Source: Paramagnetospirillum kuznetsovii (GTDB taxonomy: Bacteria > Pseudomonadota > Alphaproteobacteria > Rhodospirillales > Magnetospirillaceae). Taken from it: DNA of 64,000 nucleotides. The DNA is taken from positions 1 to 64,000 of the forward strand of contig NZ_PGTO01000016.1 of assembly GCF_003284725.1 (NCBI RefSeq), written 5' to 3'. The position numbers and the translations under genes are program-made. The notes below the pieces were generated by a model. The model was not told where the DNA came from. It searched no databases and worked only from the letters and a program-made list of their open reading frames with translations. Positions 9 to 16,045 of the stretch are shown here, in pieces; positions within the stretch are counted from its first letter, which is position 1; the number at the start of each line of letters is the position of its first letter.

Positions 9-905
9 ATGCATTTTAATATTTTTCTTAAGAACCATCACGTTACCGGGCTGGCCAGTCTTGAGGACATCATCCGTCCGATTTGTGCCGGGATGATCGA
101 AGGCGGTCATGAAGTCCAGTTCGAATACGAGCATCTGCTGCCACGGCCATGGGTCAACTTGATTTTCGAGTACTTCCCCGACATGACGCTGGTCGATGAA
201 TTGGCCGAAGCCAGGCGTCAGTTCGGCCGCGATCTGGTGCTGGGACTGATCGGCACCGAAGATCTGTCGGACACCATCTCGATGGGTGAAGCGGGCGAAC
301 AAACCCGCCTGGACAATATGCGCCAGGCGATGCCCTTATTCGACTTCATCTGGTCGATCGTGCCGGTCGATGATTACGCCCGGTTGTTTCCCGACTGCCA
401 GCCGGCCCATTTCCTGCCATTGGGACATTGTCCGACCCTGACCTTGGCGCCGACCCGCCACCTGGGCATCGACGTCATGCTGTACGGCAAGTTGAACGCC
501 TGGCGCGGCCCGGTGGTGCAGACCTTGCTTGAGCAAGGCGCCCGCGTCCAGGCCACCTTCGGCGACATGCCGGAATACATTCGCTGGAACATGCTGGGGC
601 GATCGAAGATGGTCCTGGACATGCGTCGAGGCAAGGTTGTGCGGTACATGTCGCCGTCGCGCATCTGCGCCGCCTTGCATTGTGGGACACTGGTGGTCGC
701 CGAGACTTTCGACACCAGTCCTCTGGCCAGCCTCTATCGCTATGCCCAGGCGGCGGATTATGGAGACCTGGCCGAAACCTGCCTGGACCTGATGGCCGAC
801 GAGACCAAACGGGCCGCCCGGGCCGCCCAGTTGTTCGGTCGCTTTGCCAAGGAAACCTCCATGAGGGCCAATATCGAGGCCCTGCTGCCGACCATTCCGG
901 CGTAA
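9..905 (+). CDS. Glycosyltransferase-like protein (CgeB/GT1-like fold), surface glycan type
   Basis: A 298-residue soluble protein with no signal peptide or membrane segment. The second half has a Rossmann-like strand (MLYGKLNAWRG near 157-167) and a C-terminal part with an SPSRICAAL...GTLVVAE pattern near 218-235. This resembles the nucleotide-sugar-binding half of CgeB/GT4-type transferases, where a name such as 'capitulation of the poor-quality end region' is not available, so only the fold is assigned. The frameshifted gene at 1129-2081 carries a similar C-terminal motif (GRVWETLAAGALLVEQ), which suggests two related transferases here. The ATG at 9 has little upstream sequence in the window, so an earlier start cannot be excluded. 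The donor and acceptor are unknown; a role in a surface glycan is inference. Confidence 0.6.
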   Translation: MHFNIFLKNHHVTGLASLEDIIRPICAGMIEGGHEVQFEYEHLLPRPWVNLIFEYFPDMTLVDELAEARRQFGRDLVLGLIGTEDLSDTISMGEAGEQTRLDNMRQAMPLFDFIWSIVPVDDYARLFPDCQPAHFLPLGHCPTLTLAPTRHLGIDVMLYGKLNAWRGPVVQTLLEQGARVQATFGDMPEYIRWNMLGRSKMVLDMRRGKVVRYMSPSRICAALHCGTLVVAETFDTSPLASLYRYAQAADYGDLAETCLDLMADETKRAARAAQLFGRFAKETSMRANIEALLPTIPA

Positions 906-928: not shown

Positions 929-1159
929 ATGAAGTTGGAAACGGAATTGCGGGCGGGCATGGCCGCCCATTCTGAAGGACGTCTGGTCGATGCCGCGCGA
1001 TGCTGTCGCCAGGTGCTCGAGTCCGATGACGGCATCATGGTGGGCGGCTGGTTTGAAATCAGCACCGACCTCGTCTCCGTCATGGAAACTCCGCCGACGT
1101 ATCAACATCTCGGCAGTGCGTCGAGCATTCAGGAAAACAACGTGGCGAACCAGTCCTGA
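929..1159 (+). CDS. Short TPR-like N-terminal fragment, probable truncated gene
   Basis: A 76-residue reading frame starting 24 bp after the preceding gene. Residues 1-32 (ELRAGMAAHSEGRLVDAARC) look exactly like the first helix pair of a tetratricopeptide repeat protein. After about residue 35 the similarity stops and the sequence turns low in structure (TPPTYQHLGSASSIQEN). The frame runs 31 bp into the 3' end of the convergent gene at 1129-2081, itself a TPR/glycosyltransferase-type gene. The simplest reading is a remnant of a TPR gene broken by an inversion or deletion here. It may not make a functional protein; the alternative is a short genuine hypothetical protein. Confidence 0.4.
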   Translation: MKLETELRAGMAAHSEGRLVDAARCCRQVLESDDGIMVGGWFEISTDLVSVMETPPTYQHLGSASSIQENNVANQS

Positions 1160-2081
1160 GCCGCCTGTAACTCCCCGGCCATGTCCGCTTCGCTCCTCGG
1201 GCGCAGGGCGTGGCCGAGCAGGGCGGTCCAGAACGCCGTCACGCCGTAATGCCGCTTGGCCCAGGCGTGTCCTTCGTCAGCCACCCGTCTTGCCAGATCC
1301 GGCCGCCGCTTGATGAATTTGGCGATGTGGACGATGTCTTCCACATTGGTCCAGGGCAGATAGTGACGATAGGGGGGGAAGAACTTGGCGGTCGAGGGGT
1401 TGTCCTGTTCCACCAGCAGCGCGCCGGCGGCCAGCGTCTCCCATACGCGCCCCGTGATCAGATGATCCTTGGGGCTGTGGGCCGAAATATTGAGAATGGC
1501 GCTGGCGCCGGTCAGCATGGCCATGACGCCCATATCCATCAGATGGGCGGTAGAGATCGGCCAGCGCTCGGTCCAGCGGGACAGGAAGGCTTTGGCGCGG
1601 TCACCCTGGCCGAGCCCGACCAGCCGCTTCACCAAATCGCCATGACGGTCGCTCCAGTCACCGTTGGCCGCGGCCAATGCCTCCCACTCGTCCAGCAGCG
1701 AGTCGGCATCGGCAAGGCCGGGCAGTCGAAGCAGGAGAATCAGAACCTCCAGGCGAAGGCCGAGAGGGCCTTTTAGCCTGCGCAGCAGGGCCTCGGCTTC
1801 GGCGTTGTTCCCATCCGGATCAAGGCCTCCGCCAGCCTTAGCTGTACGGGAATGAGATCGCCTTCAATGGAAAGAGCCTGCCGACAGAGATGGATTTCCG
1901 CGTCGTAGCAACCAACACCCTTCAGCCAATTCGCCAGCGGAAGCCAGAGCATGATCGAAGATTGATCCGAACCGGTCAACCAGTCGTCCACCCAGGCCAG
2001 CATCCGAGGCTGGACGCTTTCGGCCACTTCGTCATAGATCCAGCCGGTGGCGACGGCGGCAAGAACGGCGGCTGTGGGCAT
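1129..2081 (-). pseudogene. TPR/CgeB-type glycosyltransferase gene split by a 1-bp frameshift
   Basis: Two minus-strand open pieces belong to one gene. The first (2081 to 1773) has a TPR-like stretch (AEIHLCRQALSIEGDLIPVQ) and then runs into a stop after IRMGTTPKPRP. The second (open from upstream of 1677 to 1129) ends in a CgeB-like domain (GRVWETLAAGALLVEQ, then FFPPYRHYLPW). Restoring one base in the C-run at about 1810-1812 joins them: IRMG continues as NNAEAEALLRRLKGPLG through to the second piece. Repaired length is about 317 residues. The ATG at 2081 overlaps the TAA of the upstream radical SAM gene by one base (TAATG), so the two were translationally coupled. It may be a true pseudogene or a homopolymer sequencing error; the intact coding quality on both sides fits a recent or artefactual change. 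Confidence 0.7.
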
Positions 2082-3868
2082 TACGATGCTATCTCCATCG
2101 GCCAGCCGAACTGGGCGAAGCGCTCCTGCCAGTAGGGCTGGGTGGTCAGCAAGTTCCGCAGGCGGGCGGCGATCTCCGGGCTGGCGGGGCGGTCCAGCTT
2201 GGCCAGCAGGTGCTGGCGGAAGTGCAGCGCCAGGGCGTCGCCCGGCGCCACCACGTCGCTGACATATTCCAGATTGCCGAGATACTGCTCCAGCTTGATG
2301 GGGCGGTCCTCGGCCTCCAGCCGCAGATAGTTGAGGTGGACCACCATATAGGCCCAGATATCCTCCATGTCGGCGGGAGAGGGCACCTCGTCCAGCCGGT
2401 GGGAGCTGAAGACGCCGTCGAAGTCGCGGGCCAGCATGTCGCGGCCACCGGCCGATTTGCCTGCGTTCTTGCCGAAGGTGCCGCCGGCATAACGCACGCC
2501 GCTAAAATCCTCTGGCTTGATCAGCTTGTCCTCGACCATGGAATCGAACAGCGGCGTGTTGGGCAGCGGTTGCAACAGTTGGATCTGATACCAGTCCAGC
2601 CCCATCTGCCGCGCGACCGTGACGGTGTCGGCAATCTGGCTGAAAGTCTCGCCGGGAAAGCCGATGATCAGGAAGACCCGGCTGTAGATCTGGGGGAATT
2701 TGCGGATGGCCTCGGCGGCGGCCAGGAAGTTCTCCACCGTGCCGGGTTTCTTGATGCGCTTGAGGATTTCGCGGTTACCCGATTCCATGCCCAGCGACAG
2801 GCAGATGCAGCCGCTGGCGGCGGCGGCGGCGACCACCTCGTCGTCGCAGGACGCGGCGATGACGCCGTTGGTGCAATCCCAGGTCATGCCAAGATTGCGC
2901 CGAACCATCTCGTCGAACAGGGCCAGGGTCGCCCGCTTGTCGTAGAGGAAATCATCGTCCAGCCACATGACATGGCGAACCCCGAAATCATCGCGCAGCC
3001 ATTCCAATTCGTCGGCCACCGAAGTGGGAGAACGCCGCCGCACCCCCATGCCGTTGAAATTTCGCACACTGCAAAAGGTGCATTGGGCGCGGCAGCCTCG
3101 GTTGGACTGCACGGTGGCGAAGCGGGTCTCGGGCGGCAGCATGTAGAAATAGGCCCCCACCTTGCCCCAGCGCGACAATTCGTCGGGGCGCATCAGGTCG
3201 TGGGCGGGCGGCGCGTCCAGCGTCTCCACTCCGGGCCGTTGACGTTGGGAAAAGTCCGCCTCTTCCTCGCCATGGCGCAGCAGCACCTGGGCCAGCGAAT
3301 CATCGGGCAATTCGCCGTTGACCACCCTGACGAAGGTGGGGAAGGCCTCGTCGCATTCATGGCGGAAGAACAGAGAGACCATGGGCAGATCGGCCAGTAG
3401 TGCCGCCCGCGTCGCCGGAGTCGCCAAGGCGTTGGTGACGTGGACGCCGCCGACGGCGATGGGGAGGGCTGGGGCCAGGGCGGCCACGTCCGCGCAGACC
3501 CGAACCAGCATGGGATGGGTCTGGCTGAACATGCAGGTGACGCCGACCAGATCGGGCTGAAAATCGCTGACGGCGTCGGCGAGATCGCCCCGCCAAACCG
3601 CGTCATAGTCGAAATCACTCTCCCGCTCGGCCAGCCGTGCGGCGCGCAGGACCGATGACGCCAGATTGAGGATGCGGATTTCGATGCCGATGTCGCGCAG
3701 CCGCCCGGCCAGCATTCCCAGCCCATAGGGTTCGTAATTGGTGTAGCGGCCACGCTTGCAGGTGGCGAAGCTGAACAGCGACGCTTCCACGTCCGGCGGC
3801 GCGATCAGGATGACCCTCCGAACCGGGCTGTCCTTGAAGATGGACGTTATCAACCGTCGCGTCACCAT
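2081..3868 (-). CDS. B12-binding-domain radical SAM protein
   Basis: A 595-residue cytosolic protein. Residues about 17-190 form a cobalamin-binding-like Rossmann domain (ILIAPPDVEAS, YEPYGLGMLAGRL, DLVGVTCMFSQTHP, IAVGGVHVT). It is followed by a radical SAM domain with the cluster motif C259-RAQ-C263-TF-C266. Further typical elements are WLDDDFLYD, CLSLGMESGNREIL and FLIIGFPGET. This is the BchE/methyltransferase-type architecture, but the Rossmann part lacks a clear DxHxxG cobalamin-ligating motif, so B12 use is not assured. Substrate is unknown. It is divergent from the aminotransferase operon at 4024 and coupled to the frameshifted transferase gene downstream. The start is ATG 3868; GTG 3865 sits at a better distance from AGAGGA and is an alternative. 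Confidence 0.85.
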   Translation of the reverse strand: MVTRRLITSIFKDSPVRRVILIAPPDVEASLFSFATCKRGRYTNYEPYGLGMLAGRLRDIGIEIRILNLASSVLRAARLAERESDFDYDAVWRGDLADAVSDFQPDLVGVTCMFSQTHPMLVRVCADVAALAPALPIAVGGVHVTNALATPATRAALLADLPMVSLFFRHECDEAFPTFVRVVNGELPDDSLAQVLLRHGEEEADFSQRQRPGVETLDAPPAHDLMRPDELSRWGKVGAYFYMLPPETRFATVQSNRGCRAQCTFCSVRNFNGMGVRRRSPTSVADELEWLRDDFGVRHVMWLDDDFLYDKRATLALFDEMVRRNLGMTWDCTNGVIAASCDDEVVAAAAASGCICLSLGMESGNREILKRIKKPGTVENFLAAAEAIRKFPQIYSRVFLIIGFPGETFSQIADTVTVARQMGLDWYQIQLLQPLPNTPLFDSMVEDKLIKPEDFSGVRYAGGTFGKNAGKSAGGRDMLARDFDGVFSSHRLDEVPSPADMEDIWAYMVVHLNYLRLEAEDRPIKLEQYLGNLEYVSDVVAPGDALALHFRQHLLAKLDRPASPEIAARLRNLLTTQPYWQERFAQFGWPMEIAS

Positions 3869-4023
3869 TCCTCTACTTGTCCTTTAGTATATACGAATGT
3901 TATAAGTACGCTGAATATGACTTTAAAAATATAATCTATATGCCATCACGAATGACTTTATTGGTAAGTTCGTTAATAAATTGCAGCCATATAATGCGAC
4001 AGGAGGCATTTGGAGCAGCCAAG
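3869..4023. promoter_or_regulatory. AT-rich divergent promoter region
   Basis: About 155 bp between the radical SAM gene (minus) and the aminotransferase operon (plus). It is strikingly AT-rich (for example AATATAATCTATATGCC near 3929-3945) compared with the GC-rich coding DNA on both sides. An in-frame ATG upstream at 3877 would translate it as a poor-quality N-terminal extension. I therefore read it as a two-way promoter region. An AGGAGG at 4001-4006 and GGAG at 4012-4015 precede the chosen GTG at 4024. Confidence 0.5.
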
Positions 4024-5190
4024 GTGAACGCCAGTTTGCAATTCTCGGTACGGGGACGGGCTCTCATGGGCCAGAAGATGTTCGCCGTGTTGGAACAGGC
4101 CCGCCGGATCGAGAGCCAGGGCGCCAAGGTCTATCACCTGGAACTGGGCAATCCCCGCCTGCCGCCGCCGCCCGCCATCCTGTCGCGCACCGTCCAGGCC
4201 CTGATCGAGCAGGAGGTCGGCTATACCCAATCGGCCGGTCATCCCGCCCTGCGCCAAGCCATTGCCCAGTTGCGAGAGCGCGCCTGGGGGCACACGATCA
4301 CCGAGGCCAATGTGGTGGTCAGCCCGGCCAATCTGATCATCAATCAGTTCTTCGATCTGGTCTGCGATCCCGGCGACAAGGTCGTGTTCTTCACCCCCGC
4401 CTTTCCCAGCTATTGGGCGGCGGCCACCCATATGGGGCTGCAGGTGGAAGGCGTGACGCTGGACCTCGTAACCGGCTACGACCTGACCGACGAGGCGATC
4501 ACCCGCGCCCTGGCGGCGCGCCCCAAGGCCATTGTGGTCAATTCCGCCAACAATCCCACCGGCGCCGTCTATGGACGCGAGCCATTGGAGCGCCTTGCCG
4601 TCGAATGCGACCGTTTGGGCATCTGGCTGTTGTCCGACGAGACCTATGGCGAGATCAGCTTTGGCCGTCCGTTTCATTCCCTGGGCGGGCTGGAGCTTCC
4701 CCGGCTGGTGGTGATGTCGTCGTTTTCCAAGCTGTTCTCGGTGCCCGGCTACCGCATCGGCTTCGTCATCGCCCATCCCGATGTGGCGGAGAAATTCGCC
4801 CTGTCGGTCTCCACCCTGGTATCGTGCCTGCCCATTTTCACCCAACTGGGCTGCGTCGCGGCGCTGGACTGCATCGAGGACTATACCGCCAGCGTGCGCG
4901 AGCGATGCGTCTCCATGACCGAGTGGTGCGATCAGGCGCTGCAGGGCACCAACCGCATCAGCTTCGTGCCGCCCAAGGCGGGCTTCTACTATTTCCTCGA
5001 CATCTCGGCCTGCGGTCTTGACGACCTCACCTTCGCCCAGCGGCTGCTGGAGGAGCAGCAGACGGCGGTGACGCCGGGCAGCAGCTTCGATCCCAGTCTT
5101 CGCAGCCATATCCGTATCGCCACCTGCGGTTCGGTGCTCGACGTGCATGAAGGCGTCAGGCGGCTCGTCGCCCTGGCGGAGACGCTGTGA
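4024..5190 (+). CDS. PLP-dependent class I/II aminotransferase
   Basis: A 388-residue fold-type I aminotransferase that would transfer an amino group between an amino acid and a 2-oxo acid in the cytosol. Counted from the chosen start, it has NNPTG at 176-180, the cofactor Asp in SDETYGE (D205, Y208), the Schiff-base lysine K236 in SSFSKLFSVPG, and the carboxylate-binding Arg of PGYRIG (R244). GTG 4024 was chosen because GGAG sits 8 nt upstream and the family's conserved part begins soon after. ATG 3994 and the far upstream ATG 3877 are in frame but extend into AT-rich, non-coding-like sequence. It heads a five-gene operon and its TGA overlaps the next ATG by one base. The specific substrate is not readable; an unusual 2-oxo acid made by the downstream genes is inferred. 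Confidence 0.85.
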   Translation: MNASLQFSVRGRALMGQKMFAVLEQARRIESQGAKVYHLELGNPRLPPPPAILSRTVQALIEQEVGYTQSAGHPALRQAIAQLRERAWGHTITEANVVVSPANLIINQFFDLVCDPGDKVVFFTPAFPSYWAAATHMGLQVEGVTLDLVTGYDLTDEAITRALAARPKAIVVNSANNPTGAVYGREPLERLAVECDRLGIWLLSDETYGEISFGRPFHSLGGLELPRLVVMSSFSKLFSVPGYRIGFVIAHPDVAEKFALSVSTLVSCLPIFTQLGCVAALDCIEDYTASVRERCVSMTEWCDQALQGTNRISFVPPKAGFYYFLDISACGLDDLTFAQRLLEEQQTAVTPGSSFDPSLRSHIRIATCGSVLDVHEGVRRLVALAETL

Positions 5191-6680
5191 TGGACGTGTT
5201 GCTGGTCACGCCGCCCAGCCGACTCCAGGTCTATCAGGGCTTGGCGAGCGATCTGGCCGCCATCGAGCCGCCGGTCTGGTCGGGATTGATTGCCCAGTTC
5301 CTGCTGCTGCGGCGCTGCGAGGTCGCCATGCTGGACGCCGAGGCGGAGGGGCTGACCCATGAGCAGACCGCGACCCGCATCGCGGAGGCCGACGCCCGCC
5401 TGACCGTCTTCGTGGTCTATGGCCAGCAGCCCTCGGCGTCGACCCAATGCATGCCGGGCGCGCGCAAGGTGGCCGATGCCCTGACCCGGCTTGGCTTCGA
5501 CGGCGCCACCTTGGTGTTGGGCACCCATGCCTCGGCCCTGCCGGAGCGGACCCTGCGCGAGGAACCCTACACCTATGTCTGCGCGGGCGAGGGGCCGCAC
5601 ACCATTCTCGCCTTGCTGGAGCATCTGAAGGGCAGGGGGGCGCTCGCCGCCGTGCCCGGCCTGTGGTACCGCGACGGCGATGCGCTACGGGGCAACACCA
5701 GCGCCCCGGTGATCGCCGATCTCGACGCGGAACTGCCGCGTCAGGCCTGGGAACTGCTGGATATGAGCCGCTACCGCGCCCATAACTGGCATTGCTTCCA
5801 TGATCTCGGCAGCCGGGGCTCCTACGCCTCGCTGCAGACCAGCCTGGGTTGCCCGTTCCGCTGCGGTTTCTGCTGCATCAACGCGCCCTTCGGCGGTTCC
5901 GGCCTTCGGGTGTGGAGTCCCGACACCATCATCGGCCAGATCGACCTGCTGGTGGAGCGCTACGGCATCCGCAACATCAAGATTCCCGACGAGATGTTCG
6001 TGCTCAATCCCCGCCGCATCAAGGATATCTGCGACCGGCTGATCGAGCGGAATTACGGGCTCAACATCTGGGCCTATGCCCGCGTCGATACCCTCAACGA
6101 TCCGGTAATGGTGGCGAAGCTGGGCCGCGCGGGTTTCAACTGGCTGGGCATCGGGGTGGAATCGGCCTCCGACCATGTGCGCGACGGTGTCACCAAGGGC
6201 CGCTTCGGCAATGCCGACATCGTCGAGACCATCGCCCGCGTCCGCGATACCGGCATCAATATCGGCGCCAATTACATCTTCGGCCTGCCCGACGACACCT
6301 TGGGCACCATGCGCCAGACATTGGACCTCGCCCTGTCGCTCAACACCGAATGGGCCAATTTCTACTGCGCCATGGCCTATCCCGGCTCGCCGCTCTACCA
6401 GGTGGCCCGGGCCAAGGGCTGGGCGCTGCCCGATGATCCCGGCGGTCCCGGCTGGATCGGTTATTCCCAGCATTCCTATGACTGCCTGCCGCTGCCCACC
6501 GAGACCCTGTCGGCGATCCAGGTGCTCGACTTCCGCGATGCCGCCTTCAACGAGTATTTCGCCAATCCCGACTACCTCCGTCTGGTGGAGCGCAAGTTCG
6601 GCCCCGCTGTCATGGCCCATGTGCGCGAGATGACGGCCAGCACGCTGAGCCGCCGTCACCACGACCGCAAGAGCGCGTGA
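5190..6680 (+). CDS. B12-binding-domain radical SAM protein, second copy type
   Basis: A 496-residue protein with an N-terminal Rossmann-like segment (MDVLLVTPPSRL, then VFVVYGQQPSA and LVLGTHASALPE). A radical SAM core follows with C221-PFR-C225-GF-C228, then NIKIPDEMFVLNP, WLGIGVESASD and NYIFGLPDDT. This is the same architecture class as the divergent gene at 2081-3868 but clearly diverged from it. Such proteins perform methyl transfers, rearrangements or other radical reactions on unactivated carbon. The substrate cannot be named. The ATG at 5190 overlaps the aminotransferase stop (TGATG), so the two are probably made in fixed ratio. Confidence 0.85.
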   Translation: MDVLLVTPPSRLQVYQGLASDLAAIEPPVWSGLIAQFLLLRRCEVAMLDAEAEGLTHEQTATRIAEADARLTVFVVYGQQPSASTQCMPGARKVADALTRLGFDGATLVLGTHASALPERTLREEPYTYVCAGEGPHTILALLEHLKGRGALAAVPGLWYRDGDALRGNTSAPVIADLDAELPRQAWELLDMSRYRAHNWHCFHDLGSRGSYASLQTSLGCPFRCGFCCINAPFGGSGLRVWSPDTIIGQIDLLVERYGIRNIKIPDEMFVLNPRRIKDICDRLIERNYGLNIWAYARVDTLNDPVMVAKLGRAGFNWLGIGVESASDHVRDGVTKGRFGNADIVETIARVRDTGINIGANYIFGLPDDTLGTMRQTLDLALSLNTEWANFYCAMAYPGSPLYQVARAKGWALPDDPGGPGWIGYSQHSYDCLPLPTETLSAIQVLDFRDAAFNEYFANPDYLRLVERKFGPAVMAHVREMTASTLSRRHHDRKSA

Positions 6681-6691
6681 GGAGACGCCCC

Positions 6692-7858
<1,167 letters not shown>

Positions 7859-7861
7859 CCC

Positions 7862-8779
7862 ATGACCCATTCGTCTTCCCCGCGCACCCCCAATTTTGGC
7901 GCCATCCCAGGCTTGGCGGAGCGGGCAACCCCTGAGTTCTCGCTGGCGCTGTTTCGCCGCATGGCGCTGACCCGCGCCTTCGAGACTCGGGCCCGCCAAG
8001 CCCAGGCGGACCAGGATGTCCGCACCCTGATCTATCTGTGCCTGGGCGAGGAAGCCATTTCCGCCGGAATTTCCATGCATGCCGAGGGCGCCTGGGTTCT
8101 GGGGCAGCATCGCGGCCACGGCACCTATCTGTCGTTCGGCGGCAACATGGAGCGGCTGATCGACGAATTGCTCGGCATGCCCTCGGGCTGCAGCAGCGGC
8201 ATGGGGGGCTCGCCGCCCATCCACGACATGGAAAAGGGCATCGTCGGCCATAGCGGCCTGATCGGCGATCAGGTGCCCGTCGCGGTCGGCATGGCCATGG
8301 CGGGGGAGGCGCGCAAGGTGGTGACCTTCTTCGGAGACGGGGCGGCCGAGGAGGACTACGTGCTGGCCAGCCTGGGGACGGCGGCCAGCCGCAAGCTGCC
8401 CATCCTGTTCGTCTGCGAGGACAACGACCTGTCGGTGCTGACCCCGACGCGCGACCGGCGCGGCTGGGATCTGGCCCAGGTGGCGCGGGGGTTCGGGCTG
8501 GAGGCCGTCGACATCGCCGACGATCCCTGGCTGGTGGCCCATTGGGCCGAGACCCTGATGGTCCGGCTGCCCGCCCTGATCAATGTACGGACCTGCCGCG
8601 ACGTCTGGCATGTGGGCATCGGCAGCGACGGCGCGCCAGAGTGGAACCGCTTCGATCTGGTAAGGGAAAAGCTGGCGGCACTGGGCCTCGGCGAGCAGGC
8701 CGCTCGCATCGAGGCCGAGGCCCGTGATTTGGTGGAGGCCAAATGGCAAGAACGGTTGCGGATACGATCCGCGAGCTGA
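7862..8779 (+). CDS. Thiamine pyrophosphate-dependent dehydrogenase E1 component, alpha subunit
   Basis: A 305-residue protein of the pyruvate/acetoin dehydrogenase E1-alpha family. These enzymes decarboxylate a 2-oxo acid on thiamine pyrophosphate. The TPP/Mg motif is present: GDG at 158-160 followed by EDN at 186-188. The substrate-channel segment QHRGHGTYLSFG (82-93) and SGMGGSPPIHD (112-122) are also family-typical. It starts 4 bp after the condensing-enzyme gene and overlaps the beta-subunit gene by 37 bp. There is no E2 acyltransferase or E3 gene nearby, so this pair may decarboxylate or carboligate a dedicated substrate, or borrow a housekeeping E2. The true substrate is unknown. Confidence 0.85.
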   Translation: MTHSSSPRTPNFGAIPGLAERATPEFSLALFRRMALTRAFETRARQAQADQDVRTLIYLCLGEEAISAGISMHAEGAWVLGQHRGHGTYLSFGGNMERLIDELLGMPSGCSSGMGGSPPIHDMEKGIVGHSGLIGDQVPVAVGMAMAGEARKVVTFFGDGAAEEDYVLASLGTAASRKLPILFVCEDNDLSVLTPTRDRRGWDLAQVARGFGLEAVDIADDPWLVAHWAETLMVRLPALINVRTCRDVWHVGIGSDGAPEWNRFDLVREKLAALGLGEQAARIEAEARDLVEAKWQERLRIRSAS

Positions 8780-9645
8780 CGCGGGCGCATATCGCCGACA
8801 ATAACGGCGTGGTCATGGGCCAGTGCCTATCGGCGGTGGGTTGGGTGCAAAATACGGTGCCGGCCCAGGCCGAGGGCATGGTGGAACTGCCCATGACCGA
8901 CGTGGCCGGGGCAGGCTTTGCCGTGGGCATGGCGCTGACCGGGCGGCGGCCCATCTTCGTTCTGCGCTTCCAAAGCTTCCTGTGGCTCAACGCCAGCCCG
9001 CTGGTCAATTACGCCGCCAAGTCCAAATCCATGTTCGGCTATGGCTGCCCGGTCTTCGTGCGCGCCATCGCCGCCGAGGGAAGCGGAACCGGCCCGGTCC
9101 ACAGCCATTCCTTCCATTCCATCTTCATGCATGCGCCGGAACTGCCGGTGGCCGCCCCCATGACGCCGGGTGAATACGAGTCGGTGTGGGATCACTTCAT
9201 CACCCATGACGATCCCGTGCTGGTGAGCGAGCATCGGGCCAGCTACAAGACCGAGCGCGAATTGCCGGATATCATCCGCGAGGACGCCGTCCTGACCGTC
9301 TTCGCCATGGGTTCGGCCCGCTTCACCGCCCTGCAGGCGGTCGAAAGATTGGCCGCCCAGGGCATCGCCTGCAACCTGATCCATCTGGTCTGGCTGAAGC
9401 CCTTCGCCCCATCGCCCCAGGCCCTGGCGGCGCTGCGAGCCTGTGGCCGAGGGCTGGTGGTGGACGCCACCTACCAGACCTGCGGCGCGGCGCGCTCCAT
9501 CGCCTATGACCTGATGGAGGCGTCCGGGATCATGGTCCATGCCATCGGCCTGGAAGACCGCTCGCCCGGCGCCTATCCCCATCTCGAAAATCCGACCCCG
9601 TCGCCGGAGCGCATTATCGCCAAGGTGGCGGAGATGGTGACGTGA
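8743..9645 (+). CDS. Thiamine pyrophosphate-dependent dehydrogenase E1 component, beta subunit
   Basis: A 300-residue partner of the preceding alpha subunit, with a transketolase-type pyrimidine-binding domain (about 1-175) and a C-terminal domain (about 180-300). The glutamate region MVELPMTDVAGAGFAVGMAL, the segment GPVHSHSFHSIFMHAPEL, and a C-terminal LIHLVWLKPFAPS match the family. GGAGG five bases upstream supports ATG 8743, inside the alpha gene. It is the last gene of the 4024-9645 operon and is followed by a hairpin terminator at 9709-9742. Substrate unknown; see the alpha subunit. Confidence 0.85.
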   Translation: MARTVADTIRELTRAHIADNNGVVMGQCLSAVGWVQNTVPAQAEGMVELPMTDVAGAGFAVGMALTGRRPIFVLRFQSFLWLNASPLVNYAAKSKSMFGYGCPVFVRAIAAEGSGTGPVHSHSFHSIFMHAPELPVAAPMTPGEYESVWDHFITHDDPVLVSEHRASYKTERELPDIIREDAVLTVFAMGSARFTALQAVERLAAQGIACNLIHLVWLKPFAPSPQALAALRACGRGLVVDATYQTCGAARSIAYDLMEASGIMVHAIGLEDRSPGAYPHLENPTPSPERIIAKVAEMVT

Positions 9646-13616: not shown

Positions 13617-14270
13617 CTATTGCGCCTCATGGCCATCTGCCATGTCCCAAGTTCCGTCCATGACCGTCGTCGCCAGGGCGATGCTGAGGCCGTGGCGGTG
13701 GGAATGGTGGATTGACCAGCACGTGCCGTCCATCTCGAGCCGGGAGGTCTGATGGCGAGCCCCCATCAAAGCTGCGCCATTGACCGCCATGGCGGCGGCC
13801 AATCCTCCTCCGTCGGCCTTGCCGATGGCTTCTCGGATGGTCCAGAAATCATAAAAGGCGGTCGGTCCCTCGATTTCGATCAGATCCTGCTCCTCCGGCG
13901 AAAAGAAGGTGGCGGCAATCTCCTGAACTGAGCGGTCGACGCCAAGCACCTCGATGTCGATGCCGATGCGGCCGCGATCCGTGGCGGCGCAGGCGACCCA
14001 GGGGCCGGAATGGCTGATGGAAAAATCCGGCCCAGGCCGACCGTGGATGTCAACGGCAAAAGGGCGCCCATTGCCATCGGTCTTGATGATCCAGTCCCGC
14101 CCCGATAGCCCTGTCGTATCTTCGATCAGGCGGCGTACCATGGCACGTCCAAGCACGCTCTGTTGAGCCTTCGCCCCTATATGGCGAGTCCGGTCGGCGG
14201 GGGTGGCGTGGCTTTCAACCAAGACGGATGCCTCGGAACTGCCCACCGAATGGATGTATAGGAGGGTCAT
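13617..14270 (-). CDS. 4'-phosphopantetheinyl transferase (Sfp type)
   Basis: A 217-residue enzyme predicted to load phosphopantetheine from CoA onto acyl carrier proteins. Family motifs are visible: FSISHSGPWVACA, the metal-binding GIGIDIEV-like RIGIDIEVLG, and the FWTIREAIGKADGGG helix, where Arg replaces the usual first Lys of WxxKEA. It is divergent from the aryl polyene operon, with about 57 bp between starts, so its natural clients are the two carrier proteins at 15776-16287. ATG 14270 and ATG 14282 are both possible. Much longer upstream extensions overlap apeC in antisense and are not credible. Confidence 0.85.
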   Translation of the reverse strand: MTLLYIHSVGSSEASVLVESHATPADRTRHIGAKAQQSVLGRAMVRRLIEDTTGLSGRDWIIKTDGNGRPFAVDIHGRPGPDFSISHSGPWVACAATDRGRIGIDIEVLGVDRSVQEIAATFFSPEEQDLIEIEGPTAFYDFWTIREAIGKADGGGLAAAMAVNGAALMGARHQTSRLEMDGTCWSIHHSHRHGLSIALATTVMDGTWDMADGHEAQ

Positions 14271-14327
14271 GACTTCACTCATTCCCTTTGCCGTGCTACC
14301 GTTCCGGCGCTTCTCGCGCTTTGCCTC

Positions 14328-15017
14328 ATGCGGAACATGGCTGACCATATCACTTTTAATATAGCAGGCTGGGCGGCTTGGACAGGCGATGCCTGGGCCT
14401 TGTCCGGAACCGTCCAGGACGAGGAGCGGAACGCGGTTCCCGCCAGCTTGAAGCGGCGGGTTAGCGCCTGCGGACGTAAGGCGCTGGAAGCCGCATGGGC
14501 CGTTCTGCCCCAGGGCGCGGCCCCGAGGCTGGTATTGAGTTCGCGCCATGGTGAGTATCAGCGGACCTATGGATTGCTCATATCCCTCGCCGAGGATGGC
14601 AGTGTTTCTCCTGCGGAATTCAGCCTCTCGGTCCACCATGCACTGGTCGGCTTGCTGTCCATCGCCACGGCCAATCGGGCCGGTCACACCGCCATCGCGG
14701 CCGGTGAGGAGTCCTTTGCCTATGGTTTGTTGGAAGCCGCCGTTTCCGTCGGTCAAGACATGGCGCCCGTCCTGTTGATCCATTTCGACGAGCCGCTGCC
14801 CGCGTGCTATGCGGCCATCAGCGAGTCCGACCCACCCGCCATGGCTTTGGCGGTCTTGCTGACTCCGGGCGGCGACGGGGAGGCCGTCGCCATGGTGCGG
14901 GCTCAAGATGATGGTATCGCCGCCGAAAAGGGCATCGCGCAAGAGTTCCTGGATTTCCTTGGGTCAGGCGAATCCGCGCGCCGATCCGGGCGTTGGAGTT
15001 GGCGCCGTGTTGCTTGA
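14328..15017 (+). CDS. apeC: Ketosynthase-like chain length factor of aryl polyene synthesis
   Basis: A 229-residue protein resembling only the N-terminal half of a beta-ketoacyl synthase (Ketoacyl-synt_2 type). In the region where a ketosynthase carries its nucleophilic Cys, this one reads ANRAGHTAIAAGEESFAY, with no Cys, as expected for a non-catalytic chain length factor. In studied aryl polyene systems this subunit pairs with a full ketosynthase (ApeO, here at 23953). It is the first gene of the long operon. The next gene starts inside its last 11 bases. ATG 14337 is an alternative start three codons later. Confidence 0.8.
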   Translation: MRNMADHITFNIAGWAAWTGDAWALSGTVQDEERNAVPASLKRRVSACGRKALEAAWAVLPQGAAPRLVLSSRHGEYQRTYGLLISLAEDGSVSPAEFSLSVHHALVGLLSIATANRAGHTAIAAGEESFAYGLLEAAVSVGQDMAPVLLIHFDEPLPACYAAISESDPPAMALAVLLTPGGDGEAVAMVRAQDDGIAAEKGIAQEFLDFLGSGESARRSGRWSWRRVA

Positions 15018-15783
15018 ACGACTGGATCGGGGCTGGCGGTGCCTGGGCACGGGACTATTCCTGGCGGTGATCGGCCTGGGCGGCTCGTTTCTGGCCCTGA
15101 CCGTGTTTCCCGTCATCGTGCTTTTCGTCCGAGATCCCCTGGCGCGGCAGCGGCGTATCCAATCGGTGATCCGTGCCAGTTTCAAACTTTATTGCGCCGC
15201 GATCCAGGCCTTCCGCGTCGCCGATATCGAAGTGATCGGGGCGGAGCAATTGGAACAATTGCGCGGCGCCTTGGTGATCGCCAACCACCCGTCATTGCTG
15301 GACGTGGTCATGATCATGGCCGCCTTGCCCCATGCCCAATGCGTGGTCAAGGCCGGGCTGTTGCGCCATCCATTCTTCCGCCTTACCGTCCAGGGCGCAG
15401 GCTACATTCCCAATGATCTGGAGCCGGAGGCTCTGATGGCGGCCTGTGTCGCCACCTTGCGGGCGGGCAATAATCTGATCGTCTTTCCCGAAGGCACGCG
15501 GACGATCAAGGGACACTGGAAGCCGTTTCACCGAGGATTTGCCAATATCGCCACCCTGGCCAGGGCGGATGTGCAGTTGCTGAGGATTGACTGCGAGCCG
15601 TCGGCCCTGCACAAAGGCAACCCGTGGTGGAAGGTGGCCGAGAGGCGGACCGTGTTTCGGCTGACCGTGGGGCAATGCCTGGACATCCGTCAGTTCCTGG
15701 ACCAGCAGTACAGGTCGGTGGCGGTCCGTAAATTGGTATCCTTCATCGAGACTCATTACCGGGAAGTGCTGGGGCATGGATGA
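15007..15783 (+). CDS. apeD: Lysophospholipid acyltransferase-family protein
   Basis: A 258-residue 1-acylglycerol-3-phosphate acyltransferase-type protein with a hydrophobic N-terminal anchor (about residues 13-42). The catalytic HxxxxD motif is NHPSLLD (H94, D99) and the second motif FPEGTRT is at 160-166. In aryl polyene loci this enzyme is thought to help attach the polyene carboxylate to a membrane lipid. GTG 15007 is the start that keeps the family's usual length; it overlaps apeC by 11 bases. The next gene (ACP) overlaps by 8. Confidence 0.85.
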   Translation: MLLERLDRGWRCLGTGLFLAVIGLGGSFLALTVFPVIVLFVRDPLARQRRIQSVIRASFKLYCAAIQAFRVADIEVIGAEQLEQLRGALVIANHPSLLDVVMIMAALPHAQCVVKAGLLRHPFFRLTVQGAGYIPNDLEPEALMAACVATLRAGNNLIVFPEGTRTIKGHWKPFHRGFANIATLARADVQLLRIDCEPSALHKGNPWWKVAERRTVFRLTVGQCLDIRQFLDQQYRSVAVRKLVSFIETHYREVLGHG

Positions 15784-16045
15784 TCTGGAGAGTGAGCTGA
15801 AGCGGTTGATCGTTTCGGCCTTGATGCTGGAGGACTTGGCGCCCGAGGATATCGGCAGCGACGAGGCCTTGTTCGGCGATGCGGGCTTGGGGCTCGATTC
15901 CATCGATGCCCTTGAATTGGGCGTCGCCATCCGCAAGACCTATGGCATCAAGATCGAAACCGTTTCCGATGAGGTACGGGCGCATTTCGCGACTGTCCGT
16001 GCGCTGGCCGCCTTCATTCGGAGCAATGGGGGTAATGCGCCGTGA
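15776..16045 (+). CDS. apeE: Acyl carrier protein 1 of the aryl polyene locus
   Basis: An 89-residue acidic acyl carrier protein. The phosphopantetheine attachment serine is S42 in GLDSIDALEL. Four-helix-bundle length and charge pattern fit. It would carry the growing aryl polyene chain as a thioester. It overlaps apeD by 8 bases and the second ACP gene by 4 (GTGA). Confidence 0.9.
   Translation: MDDLESELKRLIVSALMLEDLAPEDIGSDEALFGDAGLGLDSIDALELGVAIRKTYGIKIETVSDEVRAHFATVRALAAFIRSNGGNAP

What the first reader, a model, noticed from the sequence alone, without database searches (positions are those of the whole stretch)
2081..9645. Unnamed biosynthetic cluster: aminotransferase, two radical SAM proteins, acyl-condensing enzyme and orphan E1 pair
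Five co-directional genes (4024-9645) are nearly gapless or overlapping. They encode a PLP aminotransferase, a B12-binding-type radical SAM protein, an isopropylmalate/homocitrate-synthase-like enzyme and a TPP-dependent E1 alpha/beta pair. A second radical SAM gene is divergent from the same AT-rich promoter region. Together they could extend a 2-oxo acid with acetyl-CoA, modify it by radical chemistry, and aminate or decarboxylate it. No E2 or E3 is present. I know of no pathway name for this set; glycosyltransferase-type neighbours hint at a modified surface sugar or acyl group.
Basis: partly seen in the sequence, partly recalled or inferred. Interest (0 to 1): 0.75.

Follow-up and report, generated by a model that had tools for sequence, protein, structure and literature searches.

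The report
Likely branched-sugar operon with custom donor
A rare, patchily distributed set of six genes in a proteobacterium probably builds an unusual acid and attaches its carbon chain to a surface sugar, using an enzyme pair borrowed from energy metabolism; the product is unknown but the idea can be tested.

Summary
Five genes at 4024-9645 (aminotransferase AT, B12-type radical SAM rSAM2, truncated LeuA-like IPMS, E1alpha, E1beta) overlap or nearly abut, and rSAM1 (2081-3868) diverges from a very AT-rich spacer. All six recur as one co-directional run in G016; AT+IPMS+E1alpha+E1beta recur in 5 of 20 E1beta loci found. They do not look like housekeeping genes. The E1beta lies in a separate, fully supported group (19 of 44 tree rows) with Asp where the other E1beta compared have Glu. 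The IPMS has a changed substrate pocket, and the genome has its own full LeuA. Across the 20 loci the E1 pair travels with a heptose-kinase-like GHMP kinase (15) and a DegT protein (13) bearing the His of sugar 3-dehydratases. My best reading: AT and IPMS supply an elongated 2-oxo acid, and E1alpha/beta, without E2/E3, transfers its acyl carbanion to a 4-keto-3-deoxy nucleotide sugar, giving a C-branched surface sugar that the radical SAM enzymes tailor. Reviewed E1-type sugar-branching pairs add only two carbons, so this would be a new variant. Donor, acceptor and every reaction are inferred, not shown.

The parts
9..905 (+). glycosyltransferase-like protein (weak Glyco_trans_1_2); a distant homologue lies next to E1beta in G016
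   Evidence: Pfam 22.4 bits, below the 25-bit cut-off; tblastn 28% over 289 aa to L040:6312-7133
1129..1677 (-). C-terminal part of a Glyco_trans_1_2 glycosyltransferase; ORF 1773-2081(-) may be its N-terminal part (by eye)
   Evidence: PF13524 49.5 bits; ORF list
2081..3868 (-). rSAM1, B12-binding radical SAM enzyme with CxxxCxxC
   Evidence: PF04055, PF02310; 70% orthologue in G016 in the same run, 39-40% relatives in G110 and G030
3869..4023 (.). AT-rich intergenic region between rSAM1 and AT (presumed divergent promoter)
   Evidence: GC 0.348, lowest 0.06% of 155-base windows; no sigma-70-type match
4024..5190 (+). AT, class I aminotransferase with the PLP lysine motif
   Evidence: PF00155 166.5 bits; SFSK in 5 of 5 copies
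5187..6680 (+). rSAM2, B12-binding radical SAM enzyme with CxxxCxxC
   Evidence: near E1beta in 6 of 20 loci; best solved match 6fd2, E 8.2e-21
6677..7858 (+). IPMS-like 2-oxo acid/acetyl-CoA condensing enzyme without the LeuA regulatory domain; pocket Q106/A148/E176/P178
   Evidence: 48% to the genome's own LeuA, open frame 517 aa
7862..8779 (+). E1alpha, ThDP-binding subunit (GDG...N)
   Evidence: PF00676; motifs
8743..9645 (+). E1beta; Asp53 where the other E1beta compared have Glu

Best explanation
The genes are the donor-and-ligase module of a branched surface-sugar pathway. AT (amino acid to 2-oxo acid) and the LeuA-derived IPMS (adds acetyl-CoA) make a tailor-made, elongated 2-oxo acid, the intermediate steps being borrowed from leucine synthesis (LeuCD, LeuB). 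E1alpha/beta binds ThDP, decarboxylates this acid and, lacking E2/E3, transfers the acyl carbanion to the C4 ketone of a GDP-linked 3,6-dideoxy-4-keto heptose or hexose made by the heptose-kinase-like GHMP kinase, a 4,6-dehydratase and the ColD-like 3-dehydratase. rSAM2 and rSAM1 modify the branched sugar (C-methylation or deoxygenation) before glycosyltransferases use it. Shown: the gene set, its recurrence, the residues, the neighbours. Inferred: every reaction, the donor, the acceptor and the order.
For: E1beta group: 19 of 44 rows on one side of a 100/100 branch; Asp53 in 19 of 19 group members covering the site, Glu in 25 of 25 covering others. Of 20 E1beta loci, 15 hold the GHMP kinase, 13 a DegT, 9 an HddC-like, 9 a Gmd-like, 9 an Fcl-like and 9 an Epi40-like gene, at thresholds set by hand. 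The 14 DegT proteins (13 loci plus own contig C67) have His at the PLP-lysine site; the own copy's best solved matches are the 2gms/3b8x/3gr9 group, E 3e-114 to 1.4e-112, 3gr9 named ColD. PMC8987622 (passages) calls Lys-to-His the most important difference of 3-dehydratases. The kinase's best solved match is 3k85, a heptose phosphate kinase. G030 holds HddC-like, Gmd-like, RmlC, ColD-like, kinase, IPMS, E1alpha, E1beta and AT within about 18 kb. IPMS pocket changed alike in 5 of 5 intact copies at positions that set substrate choice (PMC6603273, passages). Precedent: AviB1/B2 and Pau11/12 (PMC4425429, passages); YerE/ErwE and KbDH (PMC12247030, sections 2.1-2.3).
Against: The window lacks kinase, ColD-like and dehydratase genes; in this genome they lie on contig C67 beside a different, transketolase-like ThDP gene pair, so their link to the window rests on G016. 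IPMS and AT are in only 5 of 20 loci (plus one 80-aa IPMS remnant), so the E1 pair does not need them in general. 7 of 20 loci show no DegT and 11 no Gmd-like gene, some on short contigs. One LeuB and one LeuC lie above cut-off in this genome, so elongation must borrow them. The kinase scores 117.5 against a 600-bit HddA cut-off. Reviewed E1-type branching pairs make only C2 branches (PMC12247030). A sugar kinase acting before nucleotide activation could equally mean that E1 works early.
Confidence: 0.5

Rival explanations
1. The E1 pair works early, like DXS or transketolase: it joins a 2-oxo acid to an aldose phosphate to make a higher-carbon sugar, which the GHMP kinase then phosphorylates before nucleotide activation; AT and IPMS shape the donor.
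For: The kinase is the commonest partner apart from E1alpha (15 of 20). A transketolase-like gene pair lies in the own-genome locus with the kinase, ColD-like and Epi40 genes. Four loci have the kinase but no DegT in the stretch fetched (G1221, G1203, G1279, G1283a).
Against: ColD-like, RmlC-like and Fcl-like neighbours belong to enzymes that act on finished NDP-4-keto sugars.
Confidence: 0.2
2. E1 uses pyruvate and makes an ordinary C2 branch; AT and IPMS do something separate in the same pathway, for instance make an amino or acyl decoration.
For: 15 of 20 loci have no intact IPMS in the stretch seen. Known E1-type branching enzymes use pyruvate (PMC12247030, section 2.2).
Against: IPMS is directly upstream of E1alpha/E1beta in all 5 loci that have it intact, with matching pocket changes.
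Confidence: 0.2
3. The set makes a small acyl or amino-acid metabolite (a 2-oxo acid extended, radical-modified, aminated or decarboxylated) unrelated to sugar branching.
For: In the window itself the operon's scanned neighbours include no deoxysugar gene.
Against: 17 of the 20 E1beta loci have at least one of the GHMP kinase or DegT genes in the stretch seen (all but G000, G294 and G1283b, and G1283b has Gmd-like and HddC-like genes).
Confidence: 0.08
4. Housekeeping paralogues of leucine and pyruvate metabolism.
For: IPMS is 48% identical to the own LeuA; E1 has PDH-family domains.
Against: A full LeuA is present elsewhere; E1beta group, Asp53 and IPMS pocket differ; 0 of 16 other same-genus genomes have a strong E1beta match.
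Confidence: 0.02

Closest known systems
AviB1/AviB2, Pau11/Pau12, KbDH-alpha/beta (alphaKADH2 sugar-branching pairs of actinobacterial antibiotics)
   Same: Separate E1alpha and E1beta genes acting in deoxysugar pathways; pau11 inactivation helped to confirm the paulomycin cluster (PMC4425429, passages)
   Different: Those use pyruvate for C2 branches in secreted antibiotics; here there is an AT+IPMS donor module, radical SAM enzymes and heptose/ColD-type sugar genes. The sequences of those pairs were not compared here
YerE / ErwE / caryophyllose-type branching in LPS
   Same: Branching of a 3,6-dideoxy-4-keto NDP-sugar; ErwE prefers functionalised 2-oxo acids longer than pyruvate (PMC12247030, section 2.1)
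   Different: YerE-type enzymes belong to the decarboxylase superfamily, not to the E1 pairs; the sections read mention no IPMS
MAM / HphA homologation (aminotransferase plus LeuA-derived synthase)
   Same: Aminotransferase plus LeuA-like enzyme; regulatory domain absent as in MAM (PMC6603273, passages); pocket altered
   Different: No isomerase or dehydrogenase gene was seen among the neighbours annotated; the acid appears to feed a ThDP enzyme rather than an amino acid; pocket residues Q and E are unlike MAM1's L and T
ColD colitose pathway
   Same: The own-genome DegT (contig C67) is ColD-like with the catalytic His
   Different: Colitose synthesis has no ThDP step (recalled)

Membership tests
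E1-type sugar-branching ThDP pair (AviB/Pau/KbDH kind) | E1alpha and E1beta with ThDP motif, no E2/E3 gene beside | tested here: met
   motif (GDG in the near relatives, GDA in the small-genome and CPR copies); no E2/E3 among proteins scanned; not every neighbour ORF was scanned
E1-type sugar-branching ThDP pair (AviB/Pau/KbDH kind) | deoxy-keto nucleotide-sugar genes in the cluster | tested here: met
   met in most relatives; not met in the window itself, where such genes lie on contig C67
E1-type sugar-branching ThDP pair (AviB/Pau/KbDH kind) | sequence in the same clade as AviB/Pau/KbDH | not tested
   their sequences were not obtained
E1-type sugar-branching ThDP pair (AviB/Pau/KbDH kind) | carboligation to a ketone in vitro | not testable with these tools
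   needs an enzyme assay
PDH/BCKDH E1 component | NCBIfam cut-off and the Glu of E1beta | tested here: not met
   every listed score far below its cut-off; Asp53
LeuA 2-isopropylmalate synthase | equivalog score, regulatory domain, His/Ser/Asn pocket | tested here: not met
   best model 515.5 against a 532-bit cut-off, a narrow miss; match ends before the C-terminal domain; Q/A/E pocket
MAM/HphA homologation module | aminotransferase plus LeuA-like synthase, with isomerase and dehydrogenase available | tested here: inconclusive
   AT+IPMS in 5 of 20 loci; LeuB and LeuC above cut-off only once each in the genome
NDP-sugar 3-dehydratase (ColD/E1 kind) | His replacing the PLP lysine | tested here: met
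   14 of 14 including own contig C67; two other DegT genes further off in G1235 and G1301 have Lys; ColD group best solved match
HddA heptose 7-phosphate kinase | equivalog score | tested here: not met
   G016 kinase 117.5 against a 600-bit cut-off: related, function open
AprD4 or B12 radical SAM methylases | equivalog score | tested here: not met
   rSAM1 and rSAM2 below every cut-off in the lists shown (25 of 29 and 22 of 22 families)

The most novel reading that the evidence does not exclude
A new class of C-branched (deoxy)heptose in bacterial surface glycans, in which an E1-type ThDP ligase with Asp in place of the usual Glu grafts a side chain longer than two carbons, built to order by a LeuA-derived homologation enzyme, onto a GDP-4-keto sugar; the same ligase group, with other donors, serves small-genome bacteria of the same class and one CPR bacterium.
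Probability: 0.35. Interest if true: 0.78.

Novelty: new variant of a known kind. Interest (0 to 1): 0.62.

Why it matters
It would join amino-acid chain extension (as in glucosinolates), ThDP sugar branching (as in yersiniose and avilamycin) and radical SAM chemistry in one surface-sugar pathway. It would extend E1-type branching beyond two carbons and beyond antibiotics. It gives concrete, assayable predictions for donor, acceptor and product, and a residue (Asp53) for finding more members.

Tried and rejected
Rejected: housekeeping leucine or pyruvate enzymes. Rejected: my own idea that E176 sits where homocitrate synthase has its substrate arginine; the alignments did not show it, so I only compare Asn (own LeuA), Arg (own NifV-like paralogue), Ser (6ktq) and Glu (here) at that column. 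The first alignment of LeuA paralogues read two on the wrong strand and was redone. A first rSAM2 alignment used the wrong frame of L008 and was redone. AlphaFold models of E1beta (mean pLDDT 60.6, 3 sequences) and rSAM2 (48.9, 2 sequences) were too poor; no fold search was run. Plasmids: no E1beta match at E <= 1e-30. Phage families, six proteins at E <= 1e-10: one AT match of unknown function. Literature: searches of the held open-licence library for the combination of genes (listings seen) showed no description of this set; papers outside that library were not seen. In the E1beta tree my group label left out L075, so the printed group shows 18 and '2 changes'; the branch itself holds 19 rows. 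G245 was not in that tree. The tree's own warnings (long branches meeting, uneven letter make-up in 11 rows, midpoint root) stand.
Full report
Observation. The window is the first 64,000 bases of contig C7 (85,250 bases) of a 4.4 Mb genome, so nothing lies upstream of base 1. The five co-directional genes at 4024-9645 and the divergent rSAM1 at 2081-3868 are real: domains, GC3 of 0.84-0.87 and gaps of -4, -4, +3 and -37 bases. The 155-base spacer is among the most AT-rich 0.06% of windows, but no sigma-70-like site was found. Both radical SAM proteins carry a B12-binding domain.

Recurrence. In the family 53 of 55 genomes have some E1beta-like match at E <= 0.001, mostly ordinary paralogues; five stand apart at E <= 2.2e-136. 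At E <= 1e-50, 8 of 317 genomes of the order match, none of them among the 16 other same-genus genomes. Even samples of phylum and class gave 3 of 398 and 3 of 385 at E <= 1e-45, the window's own genome included. With the E1beta of one small-genome hit (G670), 10 of 297 genomes of its order match, at 11 places. A scan of genome contigs, which finds close relatives only, gave two loci, one in a Candidatus Yanofskybacteria MAG; 1 of 332 genomes of that phylum, the same one, matches. The distribution is patchy, as for a horizontally moved trait; this was not tested further.

Conserved core. In G016 the six genes lie in one co-directional run, rSAM1-AT-rSAM2-IPMS-E1alpha-E1beta, at 64-80% identity. 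All 20 E1beta places found were then examined (8 in the order, 11 in the small-genome order, 1 CPR). AT and intact IPMS are present in 5 of 20 (G000, G016, G011, G012, G030); AT lies within 5 kb of E1beta in four of these and 10.5 kb away in G030. A sixth locus, G245, has an 80-aa IPMS remnant and an E1beta that reads in two pieces.

Not housekeeping. The E1beta sequences form one side of a 100/100 branch of length 1.52, 19 of 44 rows, with the CPR sequence nested among them (the other 25 rows are the paralogues fetched plus the CPR second copy; the program warns of long branches). Read off, each group member that covers the site (19 of 19, duplicates counted once) has Asp where all 25 covering others have Glu. 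That this Glu activates ThDP in PDH is recalled. The IPMS is 48% identical to the genome's own LeuA, lacks its C-terminal domain, and changes His, Ser, Asn to Gln106, Ala148, Glu176 while keeping Pro178 in 5 of 5 intact copies. PMC6603273 (passages) tabulates AtIPMS as H186, N257, P259, S290 against L, T, G, A in MAM1; I equate Q106, E176 and P178 with 186, 257 and 259 by motif, and A148 with a LeuA position that I recall from engineering work. The genome has one LeuB and one LeuC above cut-off, so chain extension would have to borrow them.

Sugar context. Of the 20 loci (thresholds set by hand) 15 hold a GHMP kinase, 13 a DegT, 9 an HddC-like nucleotidyltransferase, 9 a Gmd-like gene, 9 an Fcl-like SDR, 9 the Epi40 SDR, 6 rSAM2, 6 the KedN5-like rSAM41 and 7 a DJ-1/cupin pair. 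Several loci are cut by contig ends (G294 9 kb, G1283a 3.4 kb), so absences are soft. The 14 DegT proteins (13 loci plus own contig C67) have His at the PLP-lysine site; two further DegT genes, 7-8 kb away in G1235 and G1301, have Lys. PMC8987622 (passages) names this substitution as the most important difference between 3-dehydratases and sugar aminotransferases. The own-genome copy matches the ColD group best among solved structures; the kinase matches a heptose phosphate kinase best (3k85), with entries called putative sugar kinase next. Two small-genome loci scanned have an HddC-GmhB-like fusion, below the HddC cut-off. G030 carries HddC-like, Gmd-like, RmlC, ColD-like, kinase, IPMS, E1alpha, E1beta and AT within about 18 kb, with radical SAM genes between.

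Own genome. The kinase (66% to G016), Epi40 (78%), ColD-like (79%) and an rSAM2 relative (51% to rSAM2) sit on contig C67, next to a transketolase N-terminal-type gene (PF00456) whose C-terminal partner I name by eye. In G016 these three sugar genes adjoin the E1 operon. I infer that the window operon and the C67 locus serve one pathway, but that locus has its own ThDP pair, which counts against a simple link.

Mechanism. E1-only pairs that attach two carbons from pyruvate to keto sugars are described for avilamycin and paulomycin (PMC4425429, passages), and kibdelomycin's KbDH was tested in vitro (PMC12247030, sections 2.1 in part, 2.2 and 2.3). That review says E1-type branching appears specialised for C2, whereas the unrelated ErwE uses longer, functionalised 2-oxo acids. 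Aminotransferase plus a LeuA-derived synthase is the homologation logic of MAM and HphA (PMC6603273 and PMC12961565, passages). Together these give the best explanation: a made-to-order 2-oxo acid as donor for E1-type branching. rSAM2 is the window's radical SAM most often near E1; its best solved match is 6fd2, AprD4 by recall, a family that NCBIfam names a radical SAM diol-dehydratase. It scores below every family cut-off, so methylation, deoxygenation or another radical step are all open.

Novelty. Each enzyme kind is known; the library searches for the combination showed no description. I rate it a new variant of a known kind, with a fair chance that donor and product are new. It remains a genomic inference; no reaction is shown.

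Noticed in passing
L063:10162-19900 and L064:1-1619 (own genome, contig C67 about 148-159.5 kb): A split transketolase-like pair (N-terminal gene by Pfam, partner by eye) beside ColD-like, Epi40, rSAM2-like and kinase genes: possibly a second sugar-branching ThDP system in the same genome.
   Followed up: partly
L086:10828-12531, L087:3243-4946: A 567-aa acetolactate-synthase-like ThDP enzyme (L087 copy scanned) directly upstream of rSAM2-E1alpha-E1beta: two ThDP enzymes in one run of genes.
   Followed up: partly
L053, L079-L083, L009: A DJ-1/PfpI protein and a cupin sit near E1alpha/E1beta in 7 of 20 loci, all without IPMS and AT; they may serve another donor. Function unexplained.
   Followed up: partly
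L051:9825-10740 and 15595-15834: In G245 E1beta is readable only as two overlapping pieces and 80 aa of IPMS remain: decay or assembly error.
   Followed up: no
window 1129-2081: TPR-like and glycosyltransferase pieces in two ORFs with no full-length protein; may be a broken or frame-split gene.
   Followed up: no
window 13617-16045: By eye, a phosphopantetheinyl-transferase-like ORF, an acyltransferase and an acyl carrier protein open a long set of genes; looks like a fatty-acid or aryl-polyene type cluster, not scanned.
   Followed up: no
L009:12942-14934: The CPR locus holds a second E1alpha/E1beta pair (Glu at the site) close to the Asp-bearing pair.
   Followed up: no
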